64,000 nt of DNA, taken from positions 12,983,501 to 13,047,500 of the forward strand of contig AP031355.1 of assembly GCA_037833965.1 (NCBI GenBank). Reading direction: 5' to 3'. This stretch comes from Marchantia polymorpha subsp. ruderalis (lineage: Eukaryota; Streptophyta; Marchantiopsida; Marchantiales; Marchantiaceae). This document shows positions 1 to 36,688 of the stretch, piece by piece (position 1 is the first letter of the stretch; each line of letters begins with the position of its first letter). Below the pieces are notes generated by a model. It had not been told where the DNA came from. It searched no databases and saw only the letters and a program-made list of their open reading frames with translations. Position numbers and translations under genes: made by a program.

Positions 1-2500
1 TTTTCTCGGATCTCTCTTTTTGTGGTTCTATTTGTGCATTAGTCGGGACGAGGGGAGAGTCACTTCGAATTGATCAGGTGCTGTGGGTAGAAGGGTAGAA
101 TTTGTGCTTTGGAGAAAAGCGGAAAGGGAGAAAAGGCTGAATTCTACATCCTGCAAGAAGAAGTCGCGGTACATGGTCTCGTGGCGACTGCAGTTGGTCT
201 ATGCATTCAAACGGGGAATGTAAATATTGATATTCTTTTTCGGATCTGGACCATTCCTTGGTCGGATGATGCTTTAGACTCTGGATGGCTGCAGGAGATG
301 AATTCTGGATGATACAGCGACAAACTAGCTTCGCTTTTGATCTCTCTGTTTTCTCTCGACGAAGCATTGAAGGCCAGGTCGCGCTGCAGTCTCCGACTTG
401 TTGAACGAGAGTTCTTAATAGTTCGTGTCGCGGACTGCAGTTCATGGGAAAAGAGTCTTGAGCAAAACACGCTCATATGCTGTGGGGACGTTACTTGCAT
501 TTGACTTCATTCAGTAGGAGTGCATGTCCCGCTGTCACACGGAGACACAGCAGGTCGTTCAGGTGCAAGAGTAGCAGCTTTAAGAGCTGCGTTGTAAATT
601 GAAGATGACAGAATACTGATTCATTGTCATAAGTTTGCTGAAGACCTCCACAAGTGAGAGAAGTTTCTGCTGGGACCCGAATTTGGCGGATCATGTCCAA
701 ATCGATCTGATACAATATCACGACACGATATCATCTTCTGCTGGTTTCTCGCTCTTTGCTAATGAACATCTGTATTTGACAGTCACTAAATTATCATCCT
801 TCGAGAATTTCAAAGCTCCGCAAACGGATAATGGAAATCGTCGCCGTCATGCCACCTTGTATATGAGAGGTCTCGAAAAGGTTGGCGAATGACACGAGAA
901 GGAGAACGATTCCAACGATCAGCGGGGCTGACCCGGCGTAGATTGGGCGTCTGCTGAGAGCTTGGTCCGGTTAAGAACGAGAGGAATCATTCCAATTCCT
1001 GTAGTCAAAGATATTGTCTGACGGTTTGGCTGACGATTTACTTTGTCTGCGAGTTACTTGCGTATTGCTTTAAGCGAATCCTTCACAAATCAGTCAAGCA
1101 TGGATTATCTGGTGCCTTCCACCCTTCAATCAAGTGTAGAAGGAGGTGTTGAAATGATGTGCCCGCCAATTGTAGGTGCCTAGGATTTCCGGACGTGGCA
1201 GGTTTGGTAGTCTGTTGTCGGAATCGAAGTGATCAAGCCTTTTTTAAATACAGTTCTTTGTCACGGTGTCCGTGATCTGATCCACAAGGTTGTGAGGAAG
1301 ATGACATCCAACTTCCACAGTGTATTGATGTGGTCAAAGTCATAGTTTCAATTTTGAGCACGACTTCTGCGTTGTACCTCTACTCAGACCGAGAAACGGA
1401 GCGCTAGCTGAAAGCGAAGAAATCTAAAATGTCAAATCCGTTTATACTTGCTTCGGTTTTAGGATTATATCAGATCACCAGTATTCACTTACGGAGCACT
1501 GGAAGATGTCACCAGTTGAATAACTGAAAGGAGGGCAGGCGGGCGCCAGACACGCACTGTTTGTGAGTGAGTGAGTGCACTTGTGGTCGAAAGCATCTCG
1601 ATTCGGTTGTGCTTGTTGCCGCAGCTGCTGCTGCTCCTACTATCACTACTTCTAGTATCCCCACTAATTCTACTTCTACTTCTTAATCCTCGCACAGCGC
1701 CGATTTGTTCGGAACCCAGTGGACTGTGGGTACTTTGACAATGGAGTAGCAAGCTTGACACCGATTGTGCTCGTCCGGACGGTTGTGTAATTCTTGCCCT
1801 TTGAAAGTCCGTGGAAAATCGGAGGTACAGATTTTTCCGAAAGTAGTAATTAACCTATTTATAACTAGTCTCGTGAAGATTCAATAATAGTTAGAAAGGG
1901 ATAGGTAGAAGAGAGGTTCCTTGTTTATTCCGCAGTGGAAGGAGAAAAATTTGGTTACTTCGTTGTTTTTGTTCCTTGCTTACGCAGATCTTTGACCTGT
2001 ATTTTGAGAAGTGATTTAAATCACTTGGCATAGTTTTAGTACAGCTAATGATGTACTCATTCAACTTGTATGAGACTACTTCTCTTGGTTTTTAAATAAA
2101 ATAAAAAAAAAAGATTTCAGAAGTGAAAAGAGGAGTATTGTGAAGAGATTGAGAATTTGCACTCAGTCTCATTTATTACAATTTCTCAGTTGTGAAAATA
2201 ATGGATTTATCATTATTACTTTTTCTATGAGATTAGTTAGGGTATATAGGCTTTCTTTATATTCTTTGCCCCTATTTGTAGTGTGAAGTGGAGTATCTTT
2301 CGGCGATTTAGTGGAAGAGGGGACATTGTAGGCCCTGGAGGCGGAAGGTTGGATATCATCTTTGTGACGGAATGGACGAGATAGCGTTGCAGGCACTGGA
2401 GGCGGGAGATAGAAGACGATGGAGTTCGACCCGGAATCGTTATGCGAGGCGATTTCCCGTGTGTTGTGTTGTTCTGTGCTGTGTTTCATTTTGGCTGGGG
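1..2500. other. Leading region, no gene recognised
   Basis: Mixed-composition DNA with only short open frames that do not resemble a known family. A loose triplet-rich patch (CTG/CTA-type) lies around 1620-1690. No LTR belonging to the gypsy element that starts near 2.8 kb could be identified. It may contain flanking gene sequence, UTR or the eroded 5' end of that element. Confidence 0.4.
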
Positions 2501-2789
2501 AGTCGTTGCTAGCTGTTTGACTATATTTGGATCCTCTCCAGTCTTGCTTCTTGATGCGCGCCCATGTCTGGGTTGACGATGATTTCCGGAGTAGTTCTAC
2601 TCTAGTGTGCTGTCAATAGTGCGGCTGGATTTGATCACCGGCGCCTATCTTTGTTACTCTCATGGTGAGACTGGAATGATGACCAATGGACCATGAGAAT
2701 CTTCTTGCGGTGATGACAGGTTAGGTTGCCCATACCCATAGTCAGTAGGGCTAGAGCAGATTAGTGCAGGGACGAGGGTATGTGGAGTT

Positions 2790-3824
2790 GTGGCAGTGGT
2801 GCCAGTTGGTGAGTTATTCATCACGGAGGAGTTTGGTGGTTCCGTTGAGGACCGTGTAGGATTTACGCGGAGTGGGTTGAGGTATCGACTACCTCATCCT
2901 AGCGCAGTAGAGGCGCGGGGTGTGGCAGATAGCGGATCTTTGGTGGTGATATCATCTAGGGTCTCACACTCGTGGACTGGAGACATGTACGGGATGTACG
3001 GGGCCATGAAGAGCCCACGGCGGTACTCTGGTGCAGCGGGCACCATTGAGTTGGATGATTTCATCCAAGAGTTTGACACGTGATGCGATATGCAGTTCTT
3101 GCGTAACCTCACGTTGTTTACACCCTTCTTTGCATGGAAGGGGTTGTTTCAGCATCTAGAGGGGCCTCCCATGGATGACTACCATGGGTTTGGGAGAGAG
3201 TATGCTGTGGAGATTGACGCATGGAGGCGTCATTGGTCTCCAAACTATATGTCGATCACCCAAGGTGGTGTTGGTACCAGTGGAGGTGCGGGTGGTAGCA
3301 TCACCGATGGTACTAGTGGAGCAGGTATCACCAGCGGTGTTGTTAGCGTTGCCAGCACGAGTGGGGAGACTACTGGCGTACCTTCGTTCAGCCCCATTCC
3401 TGAGTTTTTCAAGAGGGTGAGGAAGAACTATCAGGATTTGAGGACCGAGAAGTTGAGGAGTCTCCAAGAGTTTGAGCGGAAGACTGATGAGAGTCTTCGG
3501 GAGGCATACACTCGTATGTGGCGATTAATCTCAATTACTCACGGTGTAACTTAGGCACAGGCGGTCTAGTATTGGTACAGGATACTGGATAGAAAGCTAC
3601 GGCAGAGGGTTTAGGATGCTACCCTCTTGAGCGATGCGTCACCAACATTGGCCTATGTGTTTGCTCTTTCTAAGAAGATTGAGCTTAACATAGTGGAGGA
3701 GAGAGTGGTGACATCTTCGTTCGCTAGAGACACGATCACTACCCCTCGTGTCCCGCAGAGCACGGTACACTTTAGACCCTTTGTGAGAGTTGGTGTGGTG
3801 GATGCTAGATATCCTTGCACATGA
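2790..3824 (+). pseudogene. Element A gag remnant
   Basis: Frame of 2790 can be followed to 3824 through a TGA at 3081 (probably from Trp) and TAG at 3552 and 3612 (both fit CAG to TAG). It reads as a capsid-like helical protein: an IELDDFIQEFDT segment, an aromatic-rich WKGLFQHLEGP segment, a Gly/Ser/Thr-rich linker (about 3270-3380), then FFKRVRKNYQDLR and a helix ending in the I-ELNIVEE stretch. No CCHC zinc knuckle is seen. Identification as gag rests on its position upstream of protease and RT and on general resemblance to plant gypsy gag. Confidence 0.7.
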
Positions 3825-4743
3825 GAAGAAACGTGCTCGATTTGCAGATGAGTCAATTTCCATGGAGGACATGTCAAGCTGGAGTACACGATCAAGTGGA
3901 GTTAGTCAACCAAGAAAACCAAGAAAGAAGTTGGGCATGAATGACTTTTCCATTTCGTCTTCTCAAGCTAAGTATGACGTGGTGGAAGATGTAGGAAGTC
4001 AGAAGGCCAATATCACAGTTGGCCAACTCATTGCTTTAAATCTAGCCATACGGAAGAAGTTGAGAGGAGTCCTTAGCTCCACAAGGATCAAGAAGCAAAG
4101 ATCCAAGGGAAAGGCTCACATGACTAATGTGGGAGTTGGTGTGGAGGATGCTGCTGCCTCGGAGTTATGTACACATGCCTCAAAGATCAAAGTGAGGATC
4201 GATGGGCATGATGTTTCAGACGTGCTAGTAGATGGTGGTTCTGCTGTAAATGCAATGTCTGAAAGATTGTTGATGAAGTTGGGGATGCGACTTTCCAGAC
4301 CTTCAAGTATAATTGTTGGTATGGCCAACAAACAGAAGGTAAAACCACTTGGTGTGGTTGACAAAGTTGTGGTAAGTGTGAGAGGTGTGCAAACCTTACT
4401 TTCCTTCCAAGTACTCAAGGAAGCTAGTTATGATTTGCTATTGGGACGTCCTTGGTTGAGGGCGGTGAGAACTACTGATCGATGGCACAAGGCCTATCTG
4501 AGGATAGGCCCAAAGAACCATCGGGTAAAGGTTCCTTTGACAGGAGGAGGAAGTTCTCTTACCGACTCAGATAGACCAACCGACGAATATTGGGAATCTG
4601 AGAATGAGGAGAGTGGCAGTTTTTCAGAAGTTGACACTGACATGTCAACTTCTGATCAAGAACATCGTCAGACGACTCTTCAGATGATGATGTACAAGTT
4701 CAAGTGGTTGCTGCCATGGAGTTGCTTCCTAGACCGGGGGTGA
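3790..4743 (+). pseudogene. Element A retropepsin-like aspartic protease
   Basis: Open frame of about 317 codons. A basic N-terminal part (RKPRKKLG) leads to a retropepsin core: VLVDGGSAVNAMSERL is the active-site loop, with D-G-G-S in place of the usual D-S/T-G (a variant often seen in plant gypsy elements). This is followed by a flap-like region and the LLLGRPWLR motif typical of the C-terminal half. An acidic Ser/Asp-rich tail leads to the RT. The ORF ends at 4743 while the RT frame is already open from 4656, so the two overlap by about 88 bases in a -1 relation. Confidence 0.85.
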
Positions 4744-6380
4744 AGAAAGATCCGGACAAAGTGGAGATGAGCGAAGAGGAGGTGTGTCGAAGACTTTCTT
4801 CCCTCAAGTTTGGTCCAAATGTTATCATGGAGGAGAAGGCAAGATTTTTGGATATATTTCGCAGATATATCCATGTGTTTGCCTTTAGTTACAAAGATTT
4901 GAAGCATGTGACACTTGAAACTCATCACATTGAGTTGGAGGAGAAAGCTTGCCCTATTCGGCAGAAGCAACGACGAATCAATCCTCCTACAGCTGTGGTG
5001 GTAAAAGAGGAGATTGACAAGCTAAGGGAGGCTGGCTTCATCTATGAGGTAGAAAATTCGGAATGGGTGTCTCCTATTGTGATAGTGAAGAAAAAGAATG
5101 GTAAATTACGTGTATGTGTAGATTATAAGAAATTGAATGCTGTCACAAAGAAGTACTACTATACTCTACCTTTTATAGATGAGATTTTAGAGGAGGTAGC
5201 ATGCCATGAGTGGCATAGTTTTGGAGATGGTTATAGTGGCTATAACCAAATCCAAATTGCTTTAGAGTATCAATTGAAAACTACCTTTATCACACCATGG
5301 GAAACTTTTGCCTTTAGAGTAATGCCATTTGGTCTATGTAATGCTCTAACCACTTTCCAAAGGTTCATGAATAGGGTGTTTGAACCTTTCATTGGAAACT
5401 TTGTGAGAGATTTCATAGATGACTTTTGTGTGTACGGGAAGAAGGAGGATCATTTTGATCATTTGATCAAAATACTCCAACGTTTGGAGGAAGCCAAAGC
5501 TTCACTCAATCCAGAAAAATGCATTTTTGGAAGTGAGGAAGGCTTATTATTGGGGCACATAATTTCCAAGAATGGTATAGTTGTGGATCCAGAGAAGTTG
5601 ACGAGGATCATGGAGTTACCTTTTCCGGTGACGTTGACCAAGTTGAGACAATTCCTTGGTATGGTGGGGTACTATCGGAGGTTCATCTTGTCCTTCTCCA
5701 ACAAAGCTCATGCTTTGACGAGTTACATGAAGAAGGGGACCAAATACGAGCTCATCTTCAATGATGAAGAGGCAAAGTTGGCGTTTGAGACACTCAAGAA
5801 GGCGTTGGTGTCGGCTCCAATTTTGGCAAAACGTGATTGGGGTAAACCTTTTCTTCTGTATACAGATGCATCAAATATTGCCGTAGGATGCATCTTGAGT
5901 CAATTTGATGATGAAAAGCATGATAATCCAATTGCCTATGCTAGTAGACAGATGGTACAAGCAGAGAAGAATTATTCAATGACCGAAAGGGAGGCTTTAG
6001 CTGTCATCTTTTCACTTAAGAAGTTTTGACACTATCTTTTGGATGGAAAATTCACTATAGTGACTGATCATAAGGCCTTGAAATATATTTTCAACAAGCC
6101 TAATGCTGAGGGGAGGATAGCTAGATGGAAACTTCTACTAGCGGAATTTGATTATACCATTGAGGATCGACCGGGAAAGAAGCATGCTAATGCGGATTTG
6201 TTGTCAAGAGCTTATGATGAGGGAGGAGATCAATCTGTGGATGACACTTTTCCGGACGAAGATTTGTTGGTCATGGACACGGTGACATTGGTACCAGAGG
6301 GTACAAGGAGATTTGGGAGTTCATTTCCAAAGGAGAATTTCCTCAAGGTATGCATTCAAGAGAAAGGAATGCATTGGTAA
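4656..6380 (+). pseudogene. Element A reverse transcriptase and RNase H
   Basis: RT motifs follow in order: an entry segment with IDKLREAGFIYEV, SPIVIVKKKNGKLR, the fingers/palm CVDYKKLNAVTKK, then MPFGLCNALTTFQR. The catalytic box reads FIDDF rather than the common YLDDF, so both Asp are present. It continues with KCIFG...LLGHIIS and a GMVGYYRRFI thumb. RNase H follows (LLYTDASNIAVGCIL, AYASRQM, MTEREALAVI, TDHKALKYIF). A TGA at 6027-6029 interrupts the RNase H in KKF-stop-HYLL, best explained by CGA to TGA. The frame runs on to 6380, where it shifts into the integrase. Confidence 0.9.
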
Positions 6381-6994
6381 AAAGATGTCAACCCTATATG
6401 ATCATTGAGAAGGTGTTATTTCATCAAGGAGCTGACGGTTTGCTACGACGAGCTGTTGGAAGAGGCGAAGCATTGCAACTCATGAAGGAGTTTCACGAAG
6501 GTGCCGTGTGTGGAGGACATTTTGCGGGGAAGGTAACAGACTTCAAGATTCTTGATGCTGGATATCATTGGAAGGTATTTTCAAAGATTGTGTGGAATTT
6601 TGCAAGAGTTGTGATGTGTGTCAAGCTTTTGCTAAAAGGTCCATGAAAACCCCTCCTTTGATTTCAGTTCCAACGTTAGGTCCTTTTGAAAAATGGGGGA
6701 TAGATTTTGTATGTCCTTTGAATCTTACTCCTCGTGGAAATAAGTTCATTGTGATAGCTACAGATTATCTTACCAAGTGGGTAGAGGCAAGACCACTAAA
6801 ATCTACTAATGAGAAGGAGGTTGGTAGGTTTTTGTATGAGAGAATCATAACCAGATTTGGTTGTCCTTTGGAGTTAGTGTCGGATAGAGGAGGAGAGTTT
6901 GTGGAAAATATGATCCAAGCAATGTTAGATCATTTTTCCATCAAGTCTAGACTGAACACTTCCTACAAACCCAATGCTAATGGGTTGGCGGAGC
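6350..6994 (+). pseudogene. Element A integrase, cut off after the catalytic Glu
   Basis: The N-terminal HHCC zinc-binding region (MKEFHEG...GGHFAGK, later CKSCDVCQ) is split by a frame change around 6570-6600. The DDE core follows: WGIDF (first Asp), VSDRGGEF (second Asp) and NANGLAE (Glu). The sequence then ends abruptly: 6991-6993 encode the Glu and 6995 begins TGTAAGACCGGG, the start of another element's LTR. The integrase C-terminal domain is absent from the window. Confidence 0.88.
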
Positions 6995-7776
6995 TGTAAG
7001 ACCGGGTGTTGCACATATGTACTAAGTCTTAGAAGTGGTCAAGTGATTAAGGTGATTAGCCAAGGCATAGCTAAGACTAGCTAGTTATGACTAAACTAGT
7101 TAGTTATAACTAAGTTTATCTAGTCATGACTAAGTTTAGCTACAATGTCTATAGTTGGCGGAATAATTAGCGGAGTTCTAGAAGAATGGAGTGAGCACTT
7201 CTATTTTGTCTTTTACAAAAGTTCTAGATTTCAAGTGATTAGATATTTGACTAGAAGCTTGGATTTGATTGGTTTGACTAAATGTATGAAAGATGATTGG
7301 CTAGACTAAGTCTAATGTTGACTTAGTGGCTAGGAAGCTTGTAGAAGTTTAAAAGCTTCCAATAGCATGTCGCCACCTCAACCTTGGATTCCGGAAGCTT
7401 CTAGAAGGTTTAGGTAGACCAATGGCATGTTGCCACGTACAGAGAGTTAGTCAAACTTACCTAGGTAGAAGTAAGTTAGGAGAAATTACCACATGTTACT
7501 ATGATAACTTCTCAAGTAGTATAAATAGAGACGTAGAGTAGCACCTCTCAAGCAAGTTTGGAGAGTCATGTGTGAGGACTTGTTTCAGTAATGAAGGAGT
7601 GAAGCTTTTGAGTATCTTGGAGTATCGACGTGTGTTTGCGTTTATGTGAAGAGAGTGATGTGAGGAGAGTTTGTGTGTGAGTTGGAGTGATACATGAAGA
7701 GTTTGTGAGAAAAGGTGTTTGGAATATGAGTGAAAGGATGATTCCTAGTCTTCTAGAACCATGATGCGCTACCACA
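6995..7776 (+). repeat. Element B 5' long terminal repeat
   Basis: The 782-bp block begins TGTAAGACCGGG and ends GCGCTACCACA, giving the TG...CA ends of an LTR. It separates the broken integrase of element A from the leader ORF of element B and contains a TATA box at 7520. Internal short repeats (CTAGTTATGACTAA-type around 7075-7135; GGAAGCTTCTAGAAG-type around 7325-7415) give it a low-complexity character. No second copy in direct orientation is present, so the LTR call rests on ends, position, promoter and an eroded antisense relative at about 16.87-17.34 kb. Confidence 0.75.
7520..7527 (+). promoter_or_regulatory. LTR TATA box
   Basis: TATAAATA followed by GAGACG lies 256 bp before the LTR end, a normal place for a retrotransposon core promoter. 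Transcription would start about 30 bp downstream, near 7555. Confidence 0.55.
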
Positions 7777-7795
7777 AAGCCATCAGAGGTAAACC
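7777..7795 (+). other. Possible primer binding site
   Basis: Directly after the LTR comes AAGCCATCAGAGGTAAAC. It resembles, with several mismatches, the usual plant site complementary to the 3' end of initiator Met tRNA (TGGTATCAGAGC). Its placement is right; the sequence match is weak. Confidence 0.35.
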
Positions 7796-7817
7796 TGAGT
7801 GAGAGTCAGCCCGGAGG

Positions 7818-9166
7818 TTGCAGGCCCGGATTGAGCAGTTGGAGCAGAGGCTTGCTGCTATGGCGGGTATTGGAGCGAGCACGTTCACATTTCATGAGGG
7901 ATATGATTTTCCTTATTTAGCGAGTGCAACACAGGTGGAGGCATCGGTTGCAGTGACTAGAGGTGCAGCTCGAGCTCTAGAGCCACGCGAAGCAACAGGG
8001 GAGTTGGACCCTCAAAGGAGTGAGAGTGGGCGTCAGGTCAGACTTTCCCAGTCGTTTTTGTTGTCAGAGGTGGGCAGGACTTCATCCATGAGACCTGTAC
8101 CACCTAGTGACCTTAGTGGGAGGACTGAGACATCTACGTCACGGGTTGTGGACATGGACACACCATCTAGTGCAGTGACGCGGATGGCTAACTCAGTGAT
8201 GAGATCTCCACTATTTTCAGCTACGGAGCTGATAGACTCTAAGATTGACTTGGCTCGGGTGTTTTGTGTAGCCGACACGTTGTGTGAAAGTGGGAGTGTC
8301 ACTGCTACGAGTGCTGAGATAGGCGAGGCTATTGTTGAGGAGTTATCCTCTACGACTACATTGAGCGATGAGTCGACATGGCAGGCGCGGATGGATTTCT
8401 TACCTGTCCGACCAGCCGTTGATTGTGAGAGGGTTGTCCTTGGTGTGTGTATGGTGGACAACCGGAGTGGTGTATTTTGCTTGGTGAGTGCTACAGGGCA
8501 GGTGTATGTCCCAGCCAGAGTGTTGCTGGATTCTGATGCACAGCCCTTGATGTTGGGCAAGACAGCTTCATTAGTTTGGGAGTTCGGAGGTCCGAGTTGG
8601 AGCCTTGTCCGTTCCAGATTCAGACATCACTCGGTGGCACCAACAATAGGTCTTACATGATCACCAGAGAGGGCATATCAGTGCAGTTGAGGCATGATCA
8701 TGATCGTGATAGCTCGCAGTTTGGAGTTCGGGCGGTAGTTACAGCAGCAGAGTCATATGATGTGCTTGTTGGTGGAGCTGTGTTATATCTGATGGGATTT
8801 TGGATGGATTATTGGACAGAGATTGCTACTTATTGCCTTGGCTCGCAGTCCGGCGATGGACATATGAGTGAGCTGCCGGTGAGATTTATTTCTCGGGATC
8901 GACCTCTGGGATCTTCTACTGCGGTTTTAGCCTCCGTTGCAGGTTTCAATGGAGTGCTTACATGGTCTGATGACTTGTTGGAGAGGAACAGGTCAGCCGA
9001 GGATACTCCAGTCTATGAGGAGGTGGAGGAGATGGTGAGCCTCGCAGCGGCAGTGTCATCATCTTTGGATGTTCCACTTTGGGTTTCTTGCCACGCATTA
9101 CAGCACGAGGTTGATAGGTTGGTGAAGAAGGCTTGGAGTGGGACCTCTTTATCAGCAGAGGCATAG
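7818..9166 (+). pseudogene. Element B leader ORF and retropepsin
   Basis: The frame opens about 40 bp after the LTR with a short coiled-coil-like start (IEQLEQRLAAM). It runs through a Ser/Thr-rich stretch without gag hallmarks to a protease site, YVPARVLLDSDAQPLMLG, where the usual D-S-G is D-S-D. Around 8585-8600 the frame changes and continues as FQIQTSLGG, then SYDVLVGGAVLYLMGFW, the C-terminal protease region. A TAG at 9164 and TGA at 9167 and 9236 separate it from the methyltransferase, with which it shares a frame. The missing gag could be a deletion in this copy or a feature of the family. Confidence 0.7.
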
Positions 9167-9235
9167 TGAGTCTCAAGTGGTCGGCTAGTATGTGGTCATA
9201 GCACACTATCATCATTAGTTACTACACCTATCGTA

Positions 9236-10215
9236 TGAGAGTATTTCCAGAAGGGTGTTTGTTTGCTAGATCTTTTTGGAGGGATCAGTACAGGTTTGAT
9301 TGCAGTTTTGCAGTCAGGTATTCTTGTACGTAGATACTTGTACGTGGAGAAGGACGAGACTGCACGTCGAGTTTCTTCACGACATGTTACACAGTTGATG
9401 CAGCGTTTTCCTTTGTTGTTGCCGCGATCAGCTGTTCGAGGATACCAGAAGGCGTTGACTTCAGACATTTTGTTGTTGGGGGCGCCAGACCTTGATCGAG
9501 TTGGACATATCGATTTGGTGATTGCGGGATAGCCATGTCACGGGCACACACGCGTTGGGCATGGAGCAGGGTTGCATGACCCCAGATCTCATATGTTTTA
9601 GGAGATGCTACGAGTGTTACGTCATCTCTAGGAGCAGCAGACACGTTCTCCAGCATACATTCTAGAGAACGTACCATTGTTGGGTGACACTCGGGCTTTG
9701 TTGATGGCGAGTGTACATGAGGTCAAGGCATGGATTGGATCAGCAGTGTTGTTGGATGCTGCGAGGGTTGGTTCACGTGCTCATCGTGCACGTTTATGGT
9801 GGACCAACCTTGTGCCACGAGAGATATTGCGTCATGCGTATGTTTCTGTGCATCTTGATCCGACACTCTCCGTTGACATGATCTTGGATGCCTCTCGATA
9901 CTCTTAGGTGGTGAGAGTTGCTGACAGGTCACCTATGGCATTGGTGAACCGCGTAGGTCAGCCTCGGATGGCTTTACCTACGTTAGTCAGTTATCCGACA
10001 TCACATGCATATCGTGATGGTGGACCTGGACTACTGTGGGACAGTACCCTACATCAGTTGGTGGAGCCCAACGCCAATGAGAGAGAACATGCAATGGGAT
10101 TTATGATTGATGTGACCGCGGCTTCTTTAGTTTCAGAGGCGTCGCGTCGTCAAGCTTTGGATCAGGCTATGGACCTGAACTGCTTGACATGGATTGTGAG
10201 CTTGGGCTTGGGCGA
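9236..10215 (+). pseudogene. Element B cytosine-5 DNA methyltransferase domain (retrotransposon DNMT)
   Basis: About 326 codons in one frame match a C5-methyltransferase in full motif order. Motif I, the S-adenosylmethionine site, reads LLDLFGGISTG (9263-9295). YLYVEKDETARRV follows as motif II. Motif IV has the catalytic Cys in P-C-H-G (9533-9544; usually PCQG). Motif VI is AYILENVPLLG (ENV at 9665-9673). Motif VIII is GSRAHRARLWW (9770-9802). Motif IX is the EPNANEREHAMGF region near 10070, and motif X is ALDQAMDLNCLTWI near 10165. Four TAG stops interrupt it (9530, 9599, 9629, 9905); the first replaces the residue before PC. The natural role would be adding methyl groups to cytosines in DNA. 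It sits between protease and RT, in the protease frame, so it was part of the polyprotein. This copy cannot be active unless the stops are read through. Confidence 0.92.
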
Positions 10216-11960
10216 GCAACGCCGTTTGCTCGTTGATTTGGTGGTTGTTACAACACTTGTTAGCTCATTGCCTACCGGAACGGTAGTGGCAATGGCTGGG
10301 GGCGATAGGCGAGATATTTGTCATCCTTGGAGTTCATGGGACGAGACAAGAGTACTTGCTAGAATGGGCGCCCATGCAGCTGGAGATGTTGGTCACGTGG
10401 AGGTTGCTACAAAGGAGGGTACGGAGAGCCCTTCTTTGGAGGATGTGGCATAGCAACCATTGACAGTATCGCCTCCCTCTTGTGTGTCCATGGCGAGGAG
10501 TGGGAGCCATCGATTGATTCTCAGATCACCAGCAGAGAGAGGCGACGGTTGACACAATTCCTACGTGACTATAGGAGTTGTTTTGCCTTCAGTATGAAGG
10601 AGTTGGGTACTTTGATTGGACCCGGCATACGGATAGAGTTGGTTAGTGATACGCCAATCTTCCGTCGTACCTATCGATATAGTGATATGGAAAAGGACTT
10701 GATTCAGAGTCGGACGTTGAAGTTGTTGGAGGCTGGGTTAGTGGAGTTGTCGCATGGTGAGTATGCTTCAGCCACTATTATGCCGGCGAAGAAGGATGTA
10801 CATGGCAACTACACGGTCAGGCGCATGTGTGAAGACTACCTTCCTATCAATCGGCAGACGAAGGCCGATAAGTATGTCATGCCTACACTCGAGGAGATCT
10901 TCGATGTGGTGGGACATGCGAGGATGTTTAGTAATTTGGATCTTCGGGTAGGATACCATCAGTTGCCGATTCGGAAGGAGGACAAGGCCAAGACAGCGTT
11001 TTGAGGTGTCAACTCCCACGGCAAGGATTGTTTGTATCAGTGGCGATTCTTACCCTTTGGATTGAAGAATGCACCTGCCGAGTTCCAGAGAGTGATGGAC
11101 AGGATTCTAGCGGGGCTAGATTTTGTCAGATGTTACATTAATGATATCTTGGTGTTTAGCGACACGGTGGAGCAACACCATATACATTTGCAGATTGTGC
11201 TTGAGCGGGTGAGGGCTCATGGTTTGCGGTTACATCCTTGGAAGTGTAAGTTCTTCCAGAAGAAGGTGGAGTACTTGGGTCATGTTATTTACCAAGGTGG
11301 TTTGGGAGTTCAGCAGGCAAAGGTGGAGGCTATTGCGCGCATTCCTCGTCCAGCGGATGTGAGTATAGTTCGTGCATTCATGGGTTTGGCGAACTATTAC
11401 CGCAGGTATGTGAAGGGATTCAGCGCTATAGCGAAGTTTTTGAACCAGTTGCTGAAGTTGGATCAGGAGTGGCAATGGGGAGATGAGCAGGAAAGAGCTT
11501 TTGTTGAGCTCAAGGCCAGGTTGGTGGCCGCTCCCATCTTGAGGAGACCTATCAGAGGTCGTCCATACCACTTGCACACTCATTCGAGTATGTTGGGACT
11601 TGGAGCGGTGTTGACGAAGTGTGATGATGAGAGCAAGGAGTTTGTGGTTGTGTACGCTAGTTGTTCGAACAATGCAACAGAGTCGCGGTATAGTTCGTAC
11701 AAGGGAGAGTGTTTGGCAGCGGTGTGGGCTGTGGCACACTTCAGGTGTTACTTGTTTGGTACACAGTTTACCCTTGTTACTGATCATCAGCCGCTCAAGT
11801 GGTTGATGGAGTCCGACAAGCTCACAAGGAAGCTTGCACGGTGGGCTCTCATCTTACAAGAGTACGACTTTTAGGTGTTGCATAGGCCTGGAGTTGCGAA
11901 CTTGGATGCCGACGGTTTGAGTTGGAACCCATGCACTAGCCAGGAGGATGACACTAGAGC
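10216..11960 (+). pseudogene. Element B reverse transcriptase and RNase H
   Basis: After the methyltransferase a linker runs in the same frame to a TAG at 10451. The RT lies one frame away, starting near 10444-10480. RT motifs: IFRRTYRYS, GLVELSHGEYASATIMPAKKD, RMCEDYLPINRQTKADKY, MPTLEEIFDVVG, LPFGLKNAPAEFQRVMD. The catalytic box is Y-I-N-D at 11134-11145 instead of YxDD, a GAT to AAT change that removes one essential Asp. RNase H begins HLHTHSSMLGLGAVL, with His at 11581 where the catalytic Asp is expected, then YKGECLAAVWAV and VTDHQPLKWL. Stops are TGA 11002 (from TGG) and TAG 11872 (from CAG). Confidence 0.9.
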
Positions 11961-13154
11961 TAGGTGGCATGGTGAGCTTGATGAGGAGACGGTGCCCGGT
12001 TGGCATGCATCTGCCTTCATGTGTTGGTTACGTGGAGCCTCTAGCAGTGATGACCACTTAACATCTTACTCTAGTGAGAGAGTAGATAGTCAATCTTTGG
12101 ATCCTGTGGTTGAGGATGGTGGTATGGATCAGCGTGATGTTCACGATGATGTCTTGGAGTTGGAGTTCCTATGGACCAGTATGGTGCCAAGCACAGTGGG
12201 TGCCAAGGAGCGAGATCGTGTTCTCCAGCGGGCGAAGAGATACCGATTGGAGGGGTCACATGTTCTCCGAGTGTGGGAGGACGGTAGGTTACGAGTAGTA
12301 CCCCATCCATCTCAGAGAGCACGCATTGTGAGGCATGCTCATGAGGAGTTGGGACATTTTGGAGTGAAGCATACGTACAGCTTACTCCTTGGTTAGTATT
12401 GGTGACGTGGTATGCATACGCAAATACAGCAGTTGGTATCACGTTGCATGGTTTGTGACCGAGTGAGGGCATCGTTCAATGCCCCGACATCAGAGTTACA
12501 TTCCATGATAGGTATATCATGGAATTGGGTTACCGCTGGAGTTTGGACTTTGCTAGACCACTACCTTTGACTACACGACATTATCGGTATGTGTTGGTGA
12601 TGGTGGAGCATTTCTACAAGTGGATTGAGTTGGTGGCATTACCTGACAAGGCGAGTGAGGGAGTAGCATATGCTTTCCTTGACAGGGTGCTTAGTCACTT
12701 TGGTGCAACAGCTGAGGTGTTGACCGATCAGGGGACAGAGTTCCAGGGTGAGTTTCAGGTCTTGTGTGACAAGACGCTGATTGATCATCGGACTACTTCC
12801 CTAGATCATCCAGAGGCGCATGGTCTGGCTAAGCGGGTTGTACAGACGGTGAAAAGAGCGTTGCGCAAGTATGGCTTACAGAAGGGGCATCTTGGAGACT
12901 GGTATATTCAGTTATCATGGCTGGCCATGGGATATTGATTCAGTCGTCAAGCATCCTTGGCTTCGTTTTCAGCATATTTTCTATTGTACGGCCGAGATCC
13001 AGACTTGCCAGCAGCGATTCATCGTGAGTCTAGCAAGGTGCTGAACCTTGATGATCCAGATATGTGGGTGAGAGTGTGTTCTCAACGTGCAGTGCTCTTT
13101 TGGAGAGTTATGCATGCAGCCTTTGAGAACCTTGCGATTGCTCAGCAGTTGTGA
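11961..13154 (+). pseudogene. Element B integrase
   Basis: An HHCC zinc finger spans about 12332-12470 (HAHEELGHFGVKH, later CMVCDRVRA) and is broken by TAG 12394 and TGA 12403. A frame change before 12519 leads into the DDE core: YRWSLDFA (Asp codon 12546), VLTDQGTEF (Asp near 12725) and HGLAKRVVQ. There AAG at 12831 gives Lys in place of the catalytic Glu, again a G to A change. SLASFSAYFLLYGRDPDLP follows after a TGA at 12936. The frame ends in ENLAIAQQL at 13154. The usual C-terminal region (basic domain, chromodomain or other module) is not present. Confidence 0.88.
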
Positions 13155-13263
13155 TATCTTTGTGTGTGCACACTCTCGTTCCTTATGTATGTATATGTGA
13201 GTTGTGAGTAGAGCATGTCAGCGATGTATGATGTATGGCGATACCGAGTCGCACGACAATTCT

Positions 13264-13552
13264 CCTCGTGCAAAAACTCTATATTAGCACAATGTCTCCT
13301 AAAACTCTACTAAAAAGTGATTTTAATCAACACATCATCCGGATTAAATCTTGACAATCTCATACTTTTAAAATAAAGTTGATAGAATAGACATATATAT
13401 AGGGTTAACAGAAAATAATTGGTGTATTGTACTTGTTATTCTCACGCAAAATCTTTAAATGAGCACAATGTTTCTTAAATCTCTATTAAGAAGTGATTTT
13501 AATCTACACATCAACCGGCTTAAATCTTGACAAGCTCATACTTTTTAAAGTT
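13264..13552 (+). repeat. Two-copy direct repeat, period about 176 bp
   Basis: Copies at about 13264-13382 and 13439-13552 share GCACAATG (13287 and 13463), AAGTGATTTTAATC, ACACATCA, TTAAATCTTGACAA and CTCATACTTTT in the same order. They are about 80% alike by eye. The repeat starts about 110 bp after element B breaks off. It may be a satellite fragment or two pieces of an eroded transposon end. Confidence 0.7.
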
Positions 13553-35233: not shown

Positions 35234-36688
35234 TCAAGCTGCTGCCTCCACATGTCTTTTGACGGGTCTTCCTATCGGTCCCGCCGGGGATGGTCCCCTG
35301 AAACCTTTCGTTATGGCATCATCTACGCACCAATGAAAGGGTGGTGGACCCATGTTCCTCTCTCGTAAAAAACAGCAGAATTTGCAAATCTTCGTGTTCT
35401 CCCCTCGGCTATCCCTTGCCACAAGGCCGCGTAACATGCCGTTGAGCTTAGACAGCTCGAGCGGGCCCATGGGTCCTGGCAGAGGTGTCTGGTGTTGCTG
35501 TTGAAGGTGGGAAATATGAGCCTGAGCTTGCTGCAATGTCAGACCTCCATTCGTTCCTGCCGCTACTGCTGCAAGACCGCCCATCGATACTCTAGGAATG
35601 AAATTTCCAGTTGCTGTAGAGGACAAGGGAGACAAGGTTGACCTGGAGGCGTTCGATGCAGAGGACATGGAACTACTTCTTTGTAGAACAGGTGAAACCG
35701 AGAAATCCTTTGCAGAACCATTTCTGGCCAGAATCGCCGAAGCATGTCTTGCTCCATTTCCTTGTGGATTGGCATCGTTGAATCTATCTTGGTGGATCAC
35801 ATCTAAACCGGAGGAGTGATGAAGTTGCGGGTGCCCAGAGGAATGACCATTAGCCTTTTCAGACTGCCTGAATGATCCATCTTCCTGAATTGCGCCAGAT
35901 TGACTCCAGTGCTTTTCGAGATTTCTCCTGTCTTCTTGCTGCAATGCGGAACCGTTAGAAGTCTGCAAGGTATGACCCTCTGCTTTCCCACCACCCGACA
36001 GGACATTGAAACCTTCTACTCGCTGACTGGAAACTCCATTCGCCCATCCCGACCTCGGACTGGCAAAGCCATTCTGCCCCACTCCTTCCCGCCTCAGGAG
36101 CGTCCTCTCAACTTTAAAATCACCTCCCAAGGTCATCTTCCCCGGTGGAGAACCGCTACCGGGTCTTGGCTTGTTGCCATTACCAACAGGAATGGCAGAT
36201 GGTGACGAAGGCCGCTGCATGAAGCTCGGCGGAGACGTTGCCTCCGGTGAAAAAGTTTCATCTGCACTCCCAGTCTTAGGGCGTTCATCTGAAGGGGACA
36301 GATCACCCCGGGACGAATTTGAATCCTCGTCGTCTGCGTTCTCCGCTTCAGCACTGCGCTTCCTGGTTACCTTCCGCTCCTTTTTGGATTTTTTCATGGA
36401 TACAAGAAAATGACAATCTCTTTCCCTGCTAGGATTATGCTGATTAAGGATGATATTGAAATTGGTGTTCTCGTTGATTGGTAGCTTCTGCCTTTTCTCT
36501 GTGTCCTTCAGAGTTCTCCGACAAACAAAAACTGAAGACAACTGATAGGCAGGAATCCCTGTTTTCTGACTCATAATTGCCTGGAAGCGCTTGAATGTAA
36601 GCACAGAGTGGACGCCAACATGCCCTTTATCGTGCTCCTGCTCCCCATCATAGAAAATAACGGAGTAAGGTGTGGCAAAGCTCTCCAT
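35234..36688 (-). CDS. Plant-specific protein with DUF7138-like N-terminus and Cys/His C-terminal motif, 484 aa
   Basis: One intact minus-strand ORF from ATG at 36688 to a stop at 35234. Residues about 5-100 form a compact domain (PYSVIFYDGEQEHDKGHVGV, FQAIMSQKTGIPAYQL, FNIILNQ) that resembles the plant DUF7138 family, possibly a ubiquitin-like or PB1-like fold (inference). A Lys/Arg patch (MKKSKKERKVTRKRS, about 97-111) could be a nuclear signal. Residues about 112-390 are low-complexity, rich in Ser, Gly, Asn and Pro. A Gln/His-rich helix follows (LQQAQAHISHLQQQHQ). The C-terminus carries CKFCCF...PFHWCVDD, a C-x2-C...H-x-C set that could bind zinc, then GFRGPSPAGPIGRPVKRH. A TTCAG just upstream of the ATG could be a 3' splice site, so the 5' UTR may contain an intron. 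Function is unknown. Confidence 0.82.
   Translation of the reverse strand: MESFATPYSVIFYDGEQEHDKGHVGVHSVLTFKRFQAIMSQKTGIPAYQLSSVFVCRRTLKDTEKRQKLPINENTNFNIILNQHNPSRERDCHFLVSMKKSKKERKVTRKRSAEAENADDEDSNSSRGDLSPSDERPKTGSADETFSPEATSPPSFMQRPSSPSAIPVGNGNKPRPGSGSPPGKMTLGGDFKVERTLLRREGVGQNGFASPRSGWANGVSSQRVEGFNVLSGGGKAEGHTLQTSNGSALQQEDRRNLEKHWSQSGAIQEDGSFRQSEKANGHSSGHPQLHHSSGLDVIHQDRFNDANPQGNGARHASAILARNGSAKDFSVSPVLQRSSSMSSASNASRSTLSPLSSTATGNFIPRVSMGGLAAVAAGTNGGLTLQQAQAHISHLQQQHQTPLPGPMGPLELSKLNGMLRGLVARDSRGENTKICKFCCFLRERNMGPPPFHWCVDDAITKGFRGPSPAGPIGRPVKRHVEAAA

What the first reader, a model, noticed from the sequence alone, without database searches (positions are those of the whole stretch)
9236..10215. 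A cytosine-5 DNA methyltransferase embedded in a Ty3/gypsy polyprotein
Seen: all main C5-methyltransferase motifs (I DLFGG-STG, IV PC, VI ENV, VIII R-HRAR, IX, X) in order, in the protease frame, between retropepsin and reverse transcriptase, downstream of an LTR. Known (from memory): retrotransposons with captured DNMTs were reported in charophyte algae and dinoflagellates. Inference: this is a related or parallel case in a land-plant-like genome. An element that carries its own maintenance or de novo methylase could mark its own DNA, hide from other surveillance, or alter host silencing.
Basis: partly seen in the sequence, partly recalled or inferred. Interest (0 to 1): 0.92.

Follow-up and report, generated by a model that had tools for sequence, protein, structure and literature searches.

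The report
Liverwort jumping gene carrying DNA methylase
The window holds a broken copy of an abundant liverwort retrotransposon that carries its own DNA-methylating enzyme and, in intact copies, a chromatin-reading finger; related elements occur in mosses and green algae, so such gene capture looks more widespread in green plants than the published charophyte case.

Summary
A cytosine-5 methyltransferase domain lies at about 9236-10215, between a retropepsin motif and reverse transcriptase, in a decayed Ty3/gypsy copy (stops, frameshift, nested insertion, PHD end lost). It is not a one-off: the same genome (241 Mb, nine contigs, inferred Marchantia) holds 179 places with the element's internal repeat junction. 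Of 20 copies fetched, 5 have a full gag-PR-DNMT frame and 5 a full RT-RNaseH-integrase-PHD frame. The two frames are separated by one in-frame UAG in a readthrough-type context (18 of 20). The methylase is under purifying selection (dN/dS 0.14; RT 0.08). Relatives occur in Calypogeia, Sphagnum and many metagenomes; a second layout, with the methylase between RNase H and integrase, occurs in the green algae Haematococcus, Pleodorina and Chromochloris. Repeats are split (A-internal-B-A-B) as in DIRS, but the integrase is DDE type, with 4-bp target duplications in both copies read to both ends. An 11-nt complementarity between the predicted RNA start and the primer site suggests Tf1-like self-priming. 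The closest published relative is KnitGypsy-Dnmt3 of Klebsormidium. The bryophyte and chlorophyte branches, PHD finger, two layouts, readthrough stop, self-priming and circle model are what I add. Methylation of the element's own cDNA is the likeliest role, but is untested.

The parts
2085..3801 (+). 5' untranslated and gag part of the methylase element, before the nested insertion
   Evidence: 84% match of the 5' region of another copy to 2085-2822; 2289-3801 matches gag of other copies, pieces at 86-92%
3802..7823 (+). fragment of a different Ty3/gypsy element (protease, RT-RNase H, integrase remnant, LTR-like 6995-7823) lodged in gag; about 390 bp of gag are missing at the joint
   Evidence: other copies lack it; Pfam gag-asp_proteas, RVT_1, RNaseH; the LTR-like stretch recurs beside two other copies, once on the other strand
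7824..9169 (+). end of gag and retropepsin region, frameshifted; motif LLDSDAQPLML at 8523 (LLDSGAQPLML in another copy)
   Evidence: reading frames; other copies. Retropepsin here rests on the motif, not on a Pfam hit
9236..10215 (+). cytosine-5 DNA methyltransferase domain, DNMT3-like, degenerate (4 stops in 324 aligned codons)
10451..10459 (+). in-frame stop between methylase and RT frames, TAG CAA CCA, a UAG-CARYYA-type readthrough context
   Evidence: sequence; same site in 18 of 20 fetched copies
10480..11871 (+). reverse transcriptase and RNase H, broken by a stop at 11002-11004
   Evidence: Pfam RVT_1, RT_RNaseH; ORF list
12307..12935 (+). integrase zinc finger and DDE core (two frames in this copy)
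   Evidence: Pfam Integrase_H2C2 (below its cut-off) and rve
13147..13258 (+). repeat B (112 bp); about 0.6 kb with the integrase end and PHD finger, and an A repeat, are missing next to it
   Evidence: 95.5% match to B; deletion point from comparison with other copies

Best explanation
The feature is a dead copy of a high-copy Marchantia Ty3/gypsy family of about 10.9 kb. Likely life cycle: (1) RNA starts in repeat A about 30 nt after a TATA-like box. (2) ORF1 gives gag-PR-DNMT; readthrough of a UAG gives a minority gag-PR-DNMT-RT-RH-IN-PHD protein, so the methylase sits in most particle proteins. (3) The first 11 nt of the RNA fold back on the site just after A and prime reverse transcription, as in Tf1. 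(4) Plus-strand synthesis starts at a purine tract just before B, so the cDNA repeat is B-GC-A. (5) cDNA ends join to a two-repeat circle, which integrase opens at the palindrome ACA-GC-TGT, giving A-internal-B-GC-A-B with TG...CA ends and a 4-bp target duplication. (6) The DNMT methylates the new double-stranded cDNA or circle, and the PHD finger guides integration by reading histone tails, so the copy arrives premarked and is then kept methylated by the host. Shown from sequence: the anatomy, abundance, selection and repeat order. Inferred from motifs: steps 1-4. Model: step 5. Hypothesis: step 6.
For: Anatomy: Pfam DNMT, RT, RNase H, H2C2, rve and PHD (1.2e-10) in another copy's frames; full gag-PR-DNMT frame (1364-1365 codons) in 5 of 20 fetched copies, full RT-IN-PHD frame (1045 codons) in 5 of 20, both in 2 of 20. 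Abundance: 179 B-GC-A junctions with up to one mismatch, control 0. In one search, 27 of 150 scored rows show a frame of at least 1348 codons and no stop inside the match; that column can bridge a stop outside the match, and of the 6 of these 27 that I hold in full, 5 are truly open. Stop: TAG CAA YYA at the ORF border in 18 of 20 copies. Selection: between two subfamilies, DNMT dN/dS 0.142 (28 pairs), RT 0.077 (42 pairs). Class. Split repeats, TG...CA ends, GC joint, duplications TAGA and TCTT in 2 of 2 copies read at both ends. Self-priming: 11-nt complement in two subfamilies with diverged repeats, and in 64 and 112 genome places, controls 0. Four pairs of junctions lie 267-702 bp apart among the 100 of 179 places listed, as multi-repeat circles would give.
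Against: No expression, methylation or cDNA data. CpG observed/expected of five copies (0.68-0.86) brackets that of the rest of the window (0.77) and exceeds that of the nested non-DNMT element (0.46), so there is no deamination scar of CpG self-methylation. The fold pairs the RNA start with the primer site in the minimum-energy structure but not in the centroid, and z is only -1.1. The subfamilies keep the same 11 nt, so there is no covariation, and the counts demand exact ends. Target duplications come from two copies only. A phage methylase profile also matches (5.5e-17), so a DNMT3 origin is not proven.
Confidence: 0.55

Rival explanations
1. The methylase is a passenger or acts on RNA: it is retained for RNA binding or for methylating the element's RNA, and does not mark cDNA.
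For: A LINE DNMT tested by de Mendoza 2018 did not methylate DNA in yeast (PMC5890265 discussion). No CpG depletion here.
Against: The catalytic Cys (66 of 67 rows that are type I or DNMT-only; 104 of 105 type II rows) and the ENV Glu (69 of 72; 105 of 106) are kept. dN/dS is 0.14. The profile ranks DNMT3A far above the RNA methylase DNMT2 (1e-24 against 3e-6).
Confidence: 0.2
2. The DNMT is self-limiting: it methylates sister copies and lowers their activity, which keeps the host viable and the element persistent.
For: Compared with each of five other copies, the window copy has T for C (or A for G) at 9-10% of CG and about 9% of CHG sites but under 5% of CHH sites, as expected of methylated DNA. 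Copies with open frames coexist with decayed ones.
Against: CG and CHG methylation is the host's normal way with transposons; nothing links it to the element's enzyme.
Confidence: 0.2
3. One-off chimera: a host DNMT gene fell into one element.
For: None found.
Against: Many copies in this genome and homologues in other bryophytes and in algae. The native DNMT3 gene (L085) falls apart from all 81 collected methylases in the tree.
Confidence: 0.01
4. The split repeats come from a DIRS-type (tyrosine recombinase) life cycle.
For: Order A-internal-B-A-B is the DIRS order (as described in PMC5890265).
Against: The pol frame scanned has a DDE integrase core and no tyrosine recombinase hit. Ends are TG...CA with 4-bp duplications in 2 of 2 copies read.
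Confidence: 0.03
5. The methylase came from a phage or bacterial enzyme and not from a host DNMT3.
For: Motif IV is PCQ, and phrog_116 matches at 5.5e-17.
Against: DNMT3A is best among solved structures (1e-24), ahead of HaeIII and HhaI. The tree has long branches to both sides, and even its two DNMT3 rows do not group with support, so it cannot decide.
Confidence: 0.2

Closest known systems
KnitGypsy-Dnmt3 of Klebsormidium nitens (de Mendoza 2018, PMC5890265)
   Same: Gypsy pol with a DNMT3-related domain in a polyprotein, repeats described as DIRS-like, purifying selection on the domain.
   Different: Other hosts (liverworts, Sphagnum, chlorophytes). The parts I read do not mention a PHD finger, a readthrough stop, self-priming or two DNMT positions for it. 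No Klebsormidium sequence was among the listed hits, so homology was not tested.
SymbioDIRS-Dnmt3 of Symbiodinium (same paper)
   Same: Retrotransposon with a DNMT3 domain and A-internal-B-A-B repeats; two domain orders coexist.
   Different: That element is a tyrosine-recombinase DIRS; this one has a DDE integrase and target duplications.
Tf1/Sushi and plant Tcn1 chromoviruses (PMC6317226, passages)
   Same: Primer site complementary to the RNA's own start (here predicted from sequence).
   Different: PHD finger instead of chromodomain; carries DNMT; RT clade not tested against a reference set.
DNMT3 host genes (native copy L085 here; human DNMT3A)
   Same: Unrearranged motif order and best match among solved structures.
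   Different: PCQ where DNMT3A has PCN; no PWWP or ADD domain reported by Pfam; part of a gag polyprotein.

Membership tests
Ty3/gypsy (Metaviridae) | pol order RT-RNase H-DDE integrase, nearest solved relative Ty3 | tested here: met
   Pfam; Ty3 polyprotein 4e-99
KnitGypsy-Dnmt3 kind (gypsy with DNMT) | DNMT domain inside gag-pol of a gypsy element, multicopy | tested here: met
KnitGypsy-Dnmt3 kind (gypsy with DNMT) | DIRS-like repeat arrangement A-internal-B-A-B | tested here: met
KnitGypsy-Dnmt3 kind (gypsy with DNMT) | purifying selection on DNMT | tested here: met
   dN/dS 0.142
KnitGypsy-Dnmt3 kind (gypsy with DNMT) | common descent with the Klebsormidium element | not tested
   no Klebsormidium sequence among the hits listed; 61 of 181 hits and 15 of 135 were not listed
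DIRS/Ngaro | tyrosine recombinase | tested here: not met
   DDE integrase rve, no recombinase hit in the frame scanned
DIRS/Ngaro | no target-site duplication (recalled) | tested here: not met
   TAGA and TCTT duplications, two copies
Tf1/Sushi-Tcn1 chromoviruses | self-primer complementary to the site after the 5' repeat | tested here: met
   11 nt, sequence only
Tf1/Sushi-Tcn1 chromoviruses | C-terminal chromodomain | tested here: not met
   PHD finger, no chromodomain hit
DNMT3 methyltransferases | closest to DNMT3 among solved C5 methyltransferases, unrearranged motifs | tested here: met
   DNMT3A 1e-24, DRM 4e-12, HaeIII 2e-8, DNMT2 3e-6
DNMT3 methyltransferases | nested in eukaryotic DNMT3 in a tree | tested here: inconclusive
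   only 2 DNMT3 rows and 8 phage rows; long branches

The most novel reading that the evidence does not exclude
An old green-plant lineage of gypsy elements captured a DNMT3-like methylase and a PHD finger once, later moved the methylase between two places in pol (before RT in bryophytes, between RNase H and integrase in chlorophytes), primes its own cDNA, and integrates from two-repeat circles cut by a DDE integrase at a palindrome. Its methylase marks that circular DNA before insertion, so new copies enter the genome already methylated.
Probability: 0.3. Interest if true: 0.88.

Novelty: new variant of a known kind. Interest (0 to 1): 0.72.

Why it matters
It puts DNMT-carrying retrotransposons into what is almost certainly Marchantia, a model land plant with genetics and methylome tools, where the question of why a parasite would carry the host's silencing enzyme becomes directly testable. 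It also suggests that the Klebsormidium case may belong to a family that spans green algae and bryophytes. The split repeats with a DDE integrase offer a test of whether an LTR element can integrate from a circle. Annotation matters too: Marchantia entries named DNA (cytosine-5-)-methyltransferase include pieces of this element (P0009, P0071).

Tried and rejected
One-off fusion and a DIRS origin of the repeats were considered and rejected. A viral origin was looked at: a scan of IMG/VR gave 52 loci with 24-42% matches, which I take for phage methylases; 8 of the 52 were examined further, as outgroups in a tree. CpG depletion as a mark of self-methylation was looked for and not found. A careful maximum-likelihood search did not finish; the tree cited is the quick one with SH-aLRT only. 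Rfam and tRNA scans of the window were empty. A first spacer range for the self-primer pattern was too short and gave 3 places; it was corrected. Ten searches of the held paper library were made. I saw listings with titles and abstract starts, and opened five papers, in part or by passages (PMC5890265, PMC9516144, PMC6453930, PMC12344493, PMC6317226). None of what I saw describes DNMT retrotransposons in bryophytes or chlorophytes. Subscription papers are mostly not held, and supplements were not open to me.

Limits: the RT tree has two outgroups on long branches. Proteins for both trees were gathered by similarity to the element, so other DNMT classes are under-sampled. The 81 methylases in the tree stand for 183 near-full domains, after rows shorter than 260 residues or more than 60% identical to a kept row were dropped. 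Protein architectures rest on BLAST matches to this element's RT, RNase H, integrase and PHD and on a retropepsin pattern.

Full report
What is there. The stretch 9236-10215 encodes a cytosine-5 DNA methyltransferase domain. The motifs DLFGGISTGL, PC, ENVP, SRAHRARLWW and ERxxAMGF occur in order in one frame. Pfam finds DNA_methylase even in this broken copy (5e-6). Tblastn aligns 324 of 326 domain codons, four of them stops. It lies between a retropepsin motif and RT-RNase H (10480-11871), followed by integrase pieces. Comparison with other copies shows that the element begins upstream: its 5' region and gag are at 2085-3801, a fragment of another Ty3/gypsy element with an LTR-like end sits at 3802-7823, and the rest runs from 7824 to 13258 with the 3' part deleted.

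The genome. The window is contig C6, 12983501-13047500, of an assembly of 241,466,482 bases in nine contigs. The nearest named proteins are from Marchantia polymorpha, one at 97% identity over the whole query. The contig lengths printed for those M. polymorpha records differ from the lengths of this assembly's contigs. I infer M. polymorpha or a very close relative; no other test of species was made.

A multicopy family. A DNA search with 9236-10215 scored 40 of 400 candidates, the window's own included, all at 91% identity or more over nearly the full query. A human DNMT3A query scored 150 of 235 candidates. At least three places among these are not the element: a native DNMT3 gene (L085, best PDB match DNMT3A at 7e-29) and two genes that I read as DRM-like (L086, L092). 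By my count of the printed rows, 27 of the 150 show a frame of at least 1348 codons with no stop inside the match. That column can bridge a stop outside the match: I hold six of these 27 in full, and five are truly open. The junction GCACGACAGCTGTCATGG occurs 179 times with up to one mismatch, the reversed control never. Among 20 fetched copies, 5 have a full ORF1 (1364-1365 codons), 5 a full ORF2 (1045 codons) and 2 both. Intact copies exist; I single out none.

Protein layout. The frames of another copy read gag with two CCHC knuckles, retropepsin motif LLDSGAQ, DNMT, a stop, then RT, RNase H, integrase and a PHD finger (PF00628, 1.2e-10). Gag and retropepsin rest on weak Pfam scores or motifs in this family; relatives P0074 and P0075 give Pfam protease hits. 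No chromodomain was reported. The stop is TAG CAA YYA in 18 of 20 copies; one further copy has a similar motif with a different lead, and one none. This fits the UAG-CARYYA readthrough context of tobacco mosaic virus (recalled). The metagenome frame P0074 also ends about 118 residues after the methylase domain. Readthrough would place the methylase in the abundant gag product and the RT in a minority product.

Repeats. Two copies were read to both ends. The order is A (255 and 289 bp), internal, B (112 bp), GC, A, B. The ends are TGTCATG and ACGACA, and the flanking duplications are TAGA and TCTT. The two A repeats of one copy are 99.7% identical, of the other 93.8%. The sequence before B ends in a purine tract (AGGGGGGCGA in most copies read), and the sequence after the first A begins CTCGAAGAAC. 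A primer site after A and a purine tract before B would make reverse transcriptase build a repeat B-GC-A. The genomic form is what results if a circle with two such repeats is opened at the palindrome ACA-GC-TGT, and this explains all five joints. Four pairs of junctions 267-702 bp apart occur among the 100 of 179 places listed, which fits extra repeats in circles. This is a model, not a demonstration.

Self-priming. CTCGAAGAACT is the exact reverse complement of AGTTCTTCGAG, which lies 29-30 nt after a TATA-like box in A (29 by script in one copy; the others read by me from the sequences). Of the two first-subfamily copies read, one keeps all 11 primer-site bases and one 10. A second subfamily has a diverged A repeat (60% mean column identity in the five-row alignment, flanks included) but keeps both 11-mers at another spacing in 2 of 3 copies; the third has one change in the first 11-mer. 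The paired 11-mers occur in 64 and 112 places at the two spacings, controls 0; one locus among the 64 is listed on both strands. The pattern demands exact ends, so these counts show frequency, not conservation. The fold supports the pairing only in the minimum-energy structure, with z -1.1. That Tf1 uses an 11-nt self-primer is recalled.

Selection and decay. Between copies of two subfamilies whose domain has no stop, DNMT dN/dS is 0.142 (28 pairs; codon bootstrap of one pair 0.086-0.216) and RT 0.077 (42 pairs; 0.018-0.116). These pairs share few independent lineages. Against each of five other copies, the window copy has T for C (or A for G) at 9.1-9.7% of CG, 8.9-9.4% of CHG and 4.6-4.9% of CHH sites, against 3.0-3.5% the other way at A/T sites, the pattern expected of methylated, silenced DNA. 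CpG ratios give no sign of extra self-methylation.

Relatives. One search gave 62 proteins, a profile search 181 with 120 listed, and a second profile 135 with 120 listed. Named hosts among the listed proteins are Marchantia polymorpha, Calypogeia fissa and four Sphagnum species; Haematococcus lacustris, Pleodorina starrii and Chromochloris zofingiensis (read from the label Chrzof1); and Closterium sp. NIES-54, where the methylase is fused to a copia-type gag. In the Haematococcus (P0165) and Pleodorina (P0235) proteins the methylase is seen by my profile and not by Pfam, and the Pleodorina row is a long branch. Of 183 proteins with near-full domains, the commonest orders were RT-RH-DNMT-IN-PHD (65), DNMT alone (49) and PR-DNMT (18). 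In the quick tree all 81 collected methylases, 12 of them of unassigned layout, lie on one side of a long branch (SH-aLRT 99) from the native DNMT3, human DNMT3A and 8 phage enzymes, and the RT-RH-DNMT type forms one group (99) that also takes in 6 unassigned rows. RT-RNase H of this family is 45% (median of 80) identical to that type, 37.5% to Ty3 and 34% to the nested element. This favours one lineage with a relocated methylase, though outgroups are few.

What is known. De Mendoza and colleagues (PMC5890265; parts 1-2 of 7, sections 9 and 11, and passages) described KnitGypsy-Dnmt3 with a DNMT3 domain in gypsy pol and a DIRS-like repeat order, and showed that retrotransposon DNMTs can methylate CG de novo; a word search of its main text found no Marchantia or liverwort. 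Sarre and colleagues (PMC12344493, passages) mention DNMT3 in Copia and DIRS elements as reported in streptophytes and dinoflagellates. A plant LTR survey (PMC6317226, passages) reports self-priming in Tcn1 and TAR and has no mention of methyltransferase. I found no description of the bryophyte or chlorophyte family in ten library searches, seen mostly as listings.

Judgement. The finding is real. It is a new variant of a known kind, with a wider host range and several structural traits that, as far as I could search, are unreported. The function of the methylase remains a hypothesis.

Noticed in passing
type II relatives (such as P0106, P0115, P0139): Motif IV reads ECQ instead of PCQ in 61 of 105 rows while the catalytic Cys (104 of 105) and ENV Glu (105 of 106) are kept; a changed or unusual chemistry is possible.
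   Followed up: no
contig C1 of the genome (5,591,195 bp): By my count of printed rows this small contig, perhaps a sex chromosome, has 15 of 179 B-GC-A junctions and 22 of 248 primer junctions, 3.6-3.8 times its share of the genome.
   Followed up: no
P0254, Closterium sp. NIES-54: A copia-type gag (PF14223) fused to a related DNMT suggests that the methylase also entered copia elements.
   Followed up: no
P0046: A protein labelled as from a Candidatus Obscuribacterales MAG groups with this retrotransposon methylase set, probably a eukaryotic contaminant contig.
   Followed up: no
window 13260-13373 and 13436-13549: Direct repeat, 84% identical, 176 bp apart, just beyond the element's last B repeat.
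   Followed up: no
window 35234-36688 (-): Open frame of 484 codons outside the element, probably part of a host gene.
   Followed up: no
P0106 residues 1191-1239: A Tudor-like domain (PF21743) follows the PHD finger in a type II relative.
   Followed up: no
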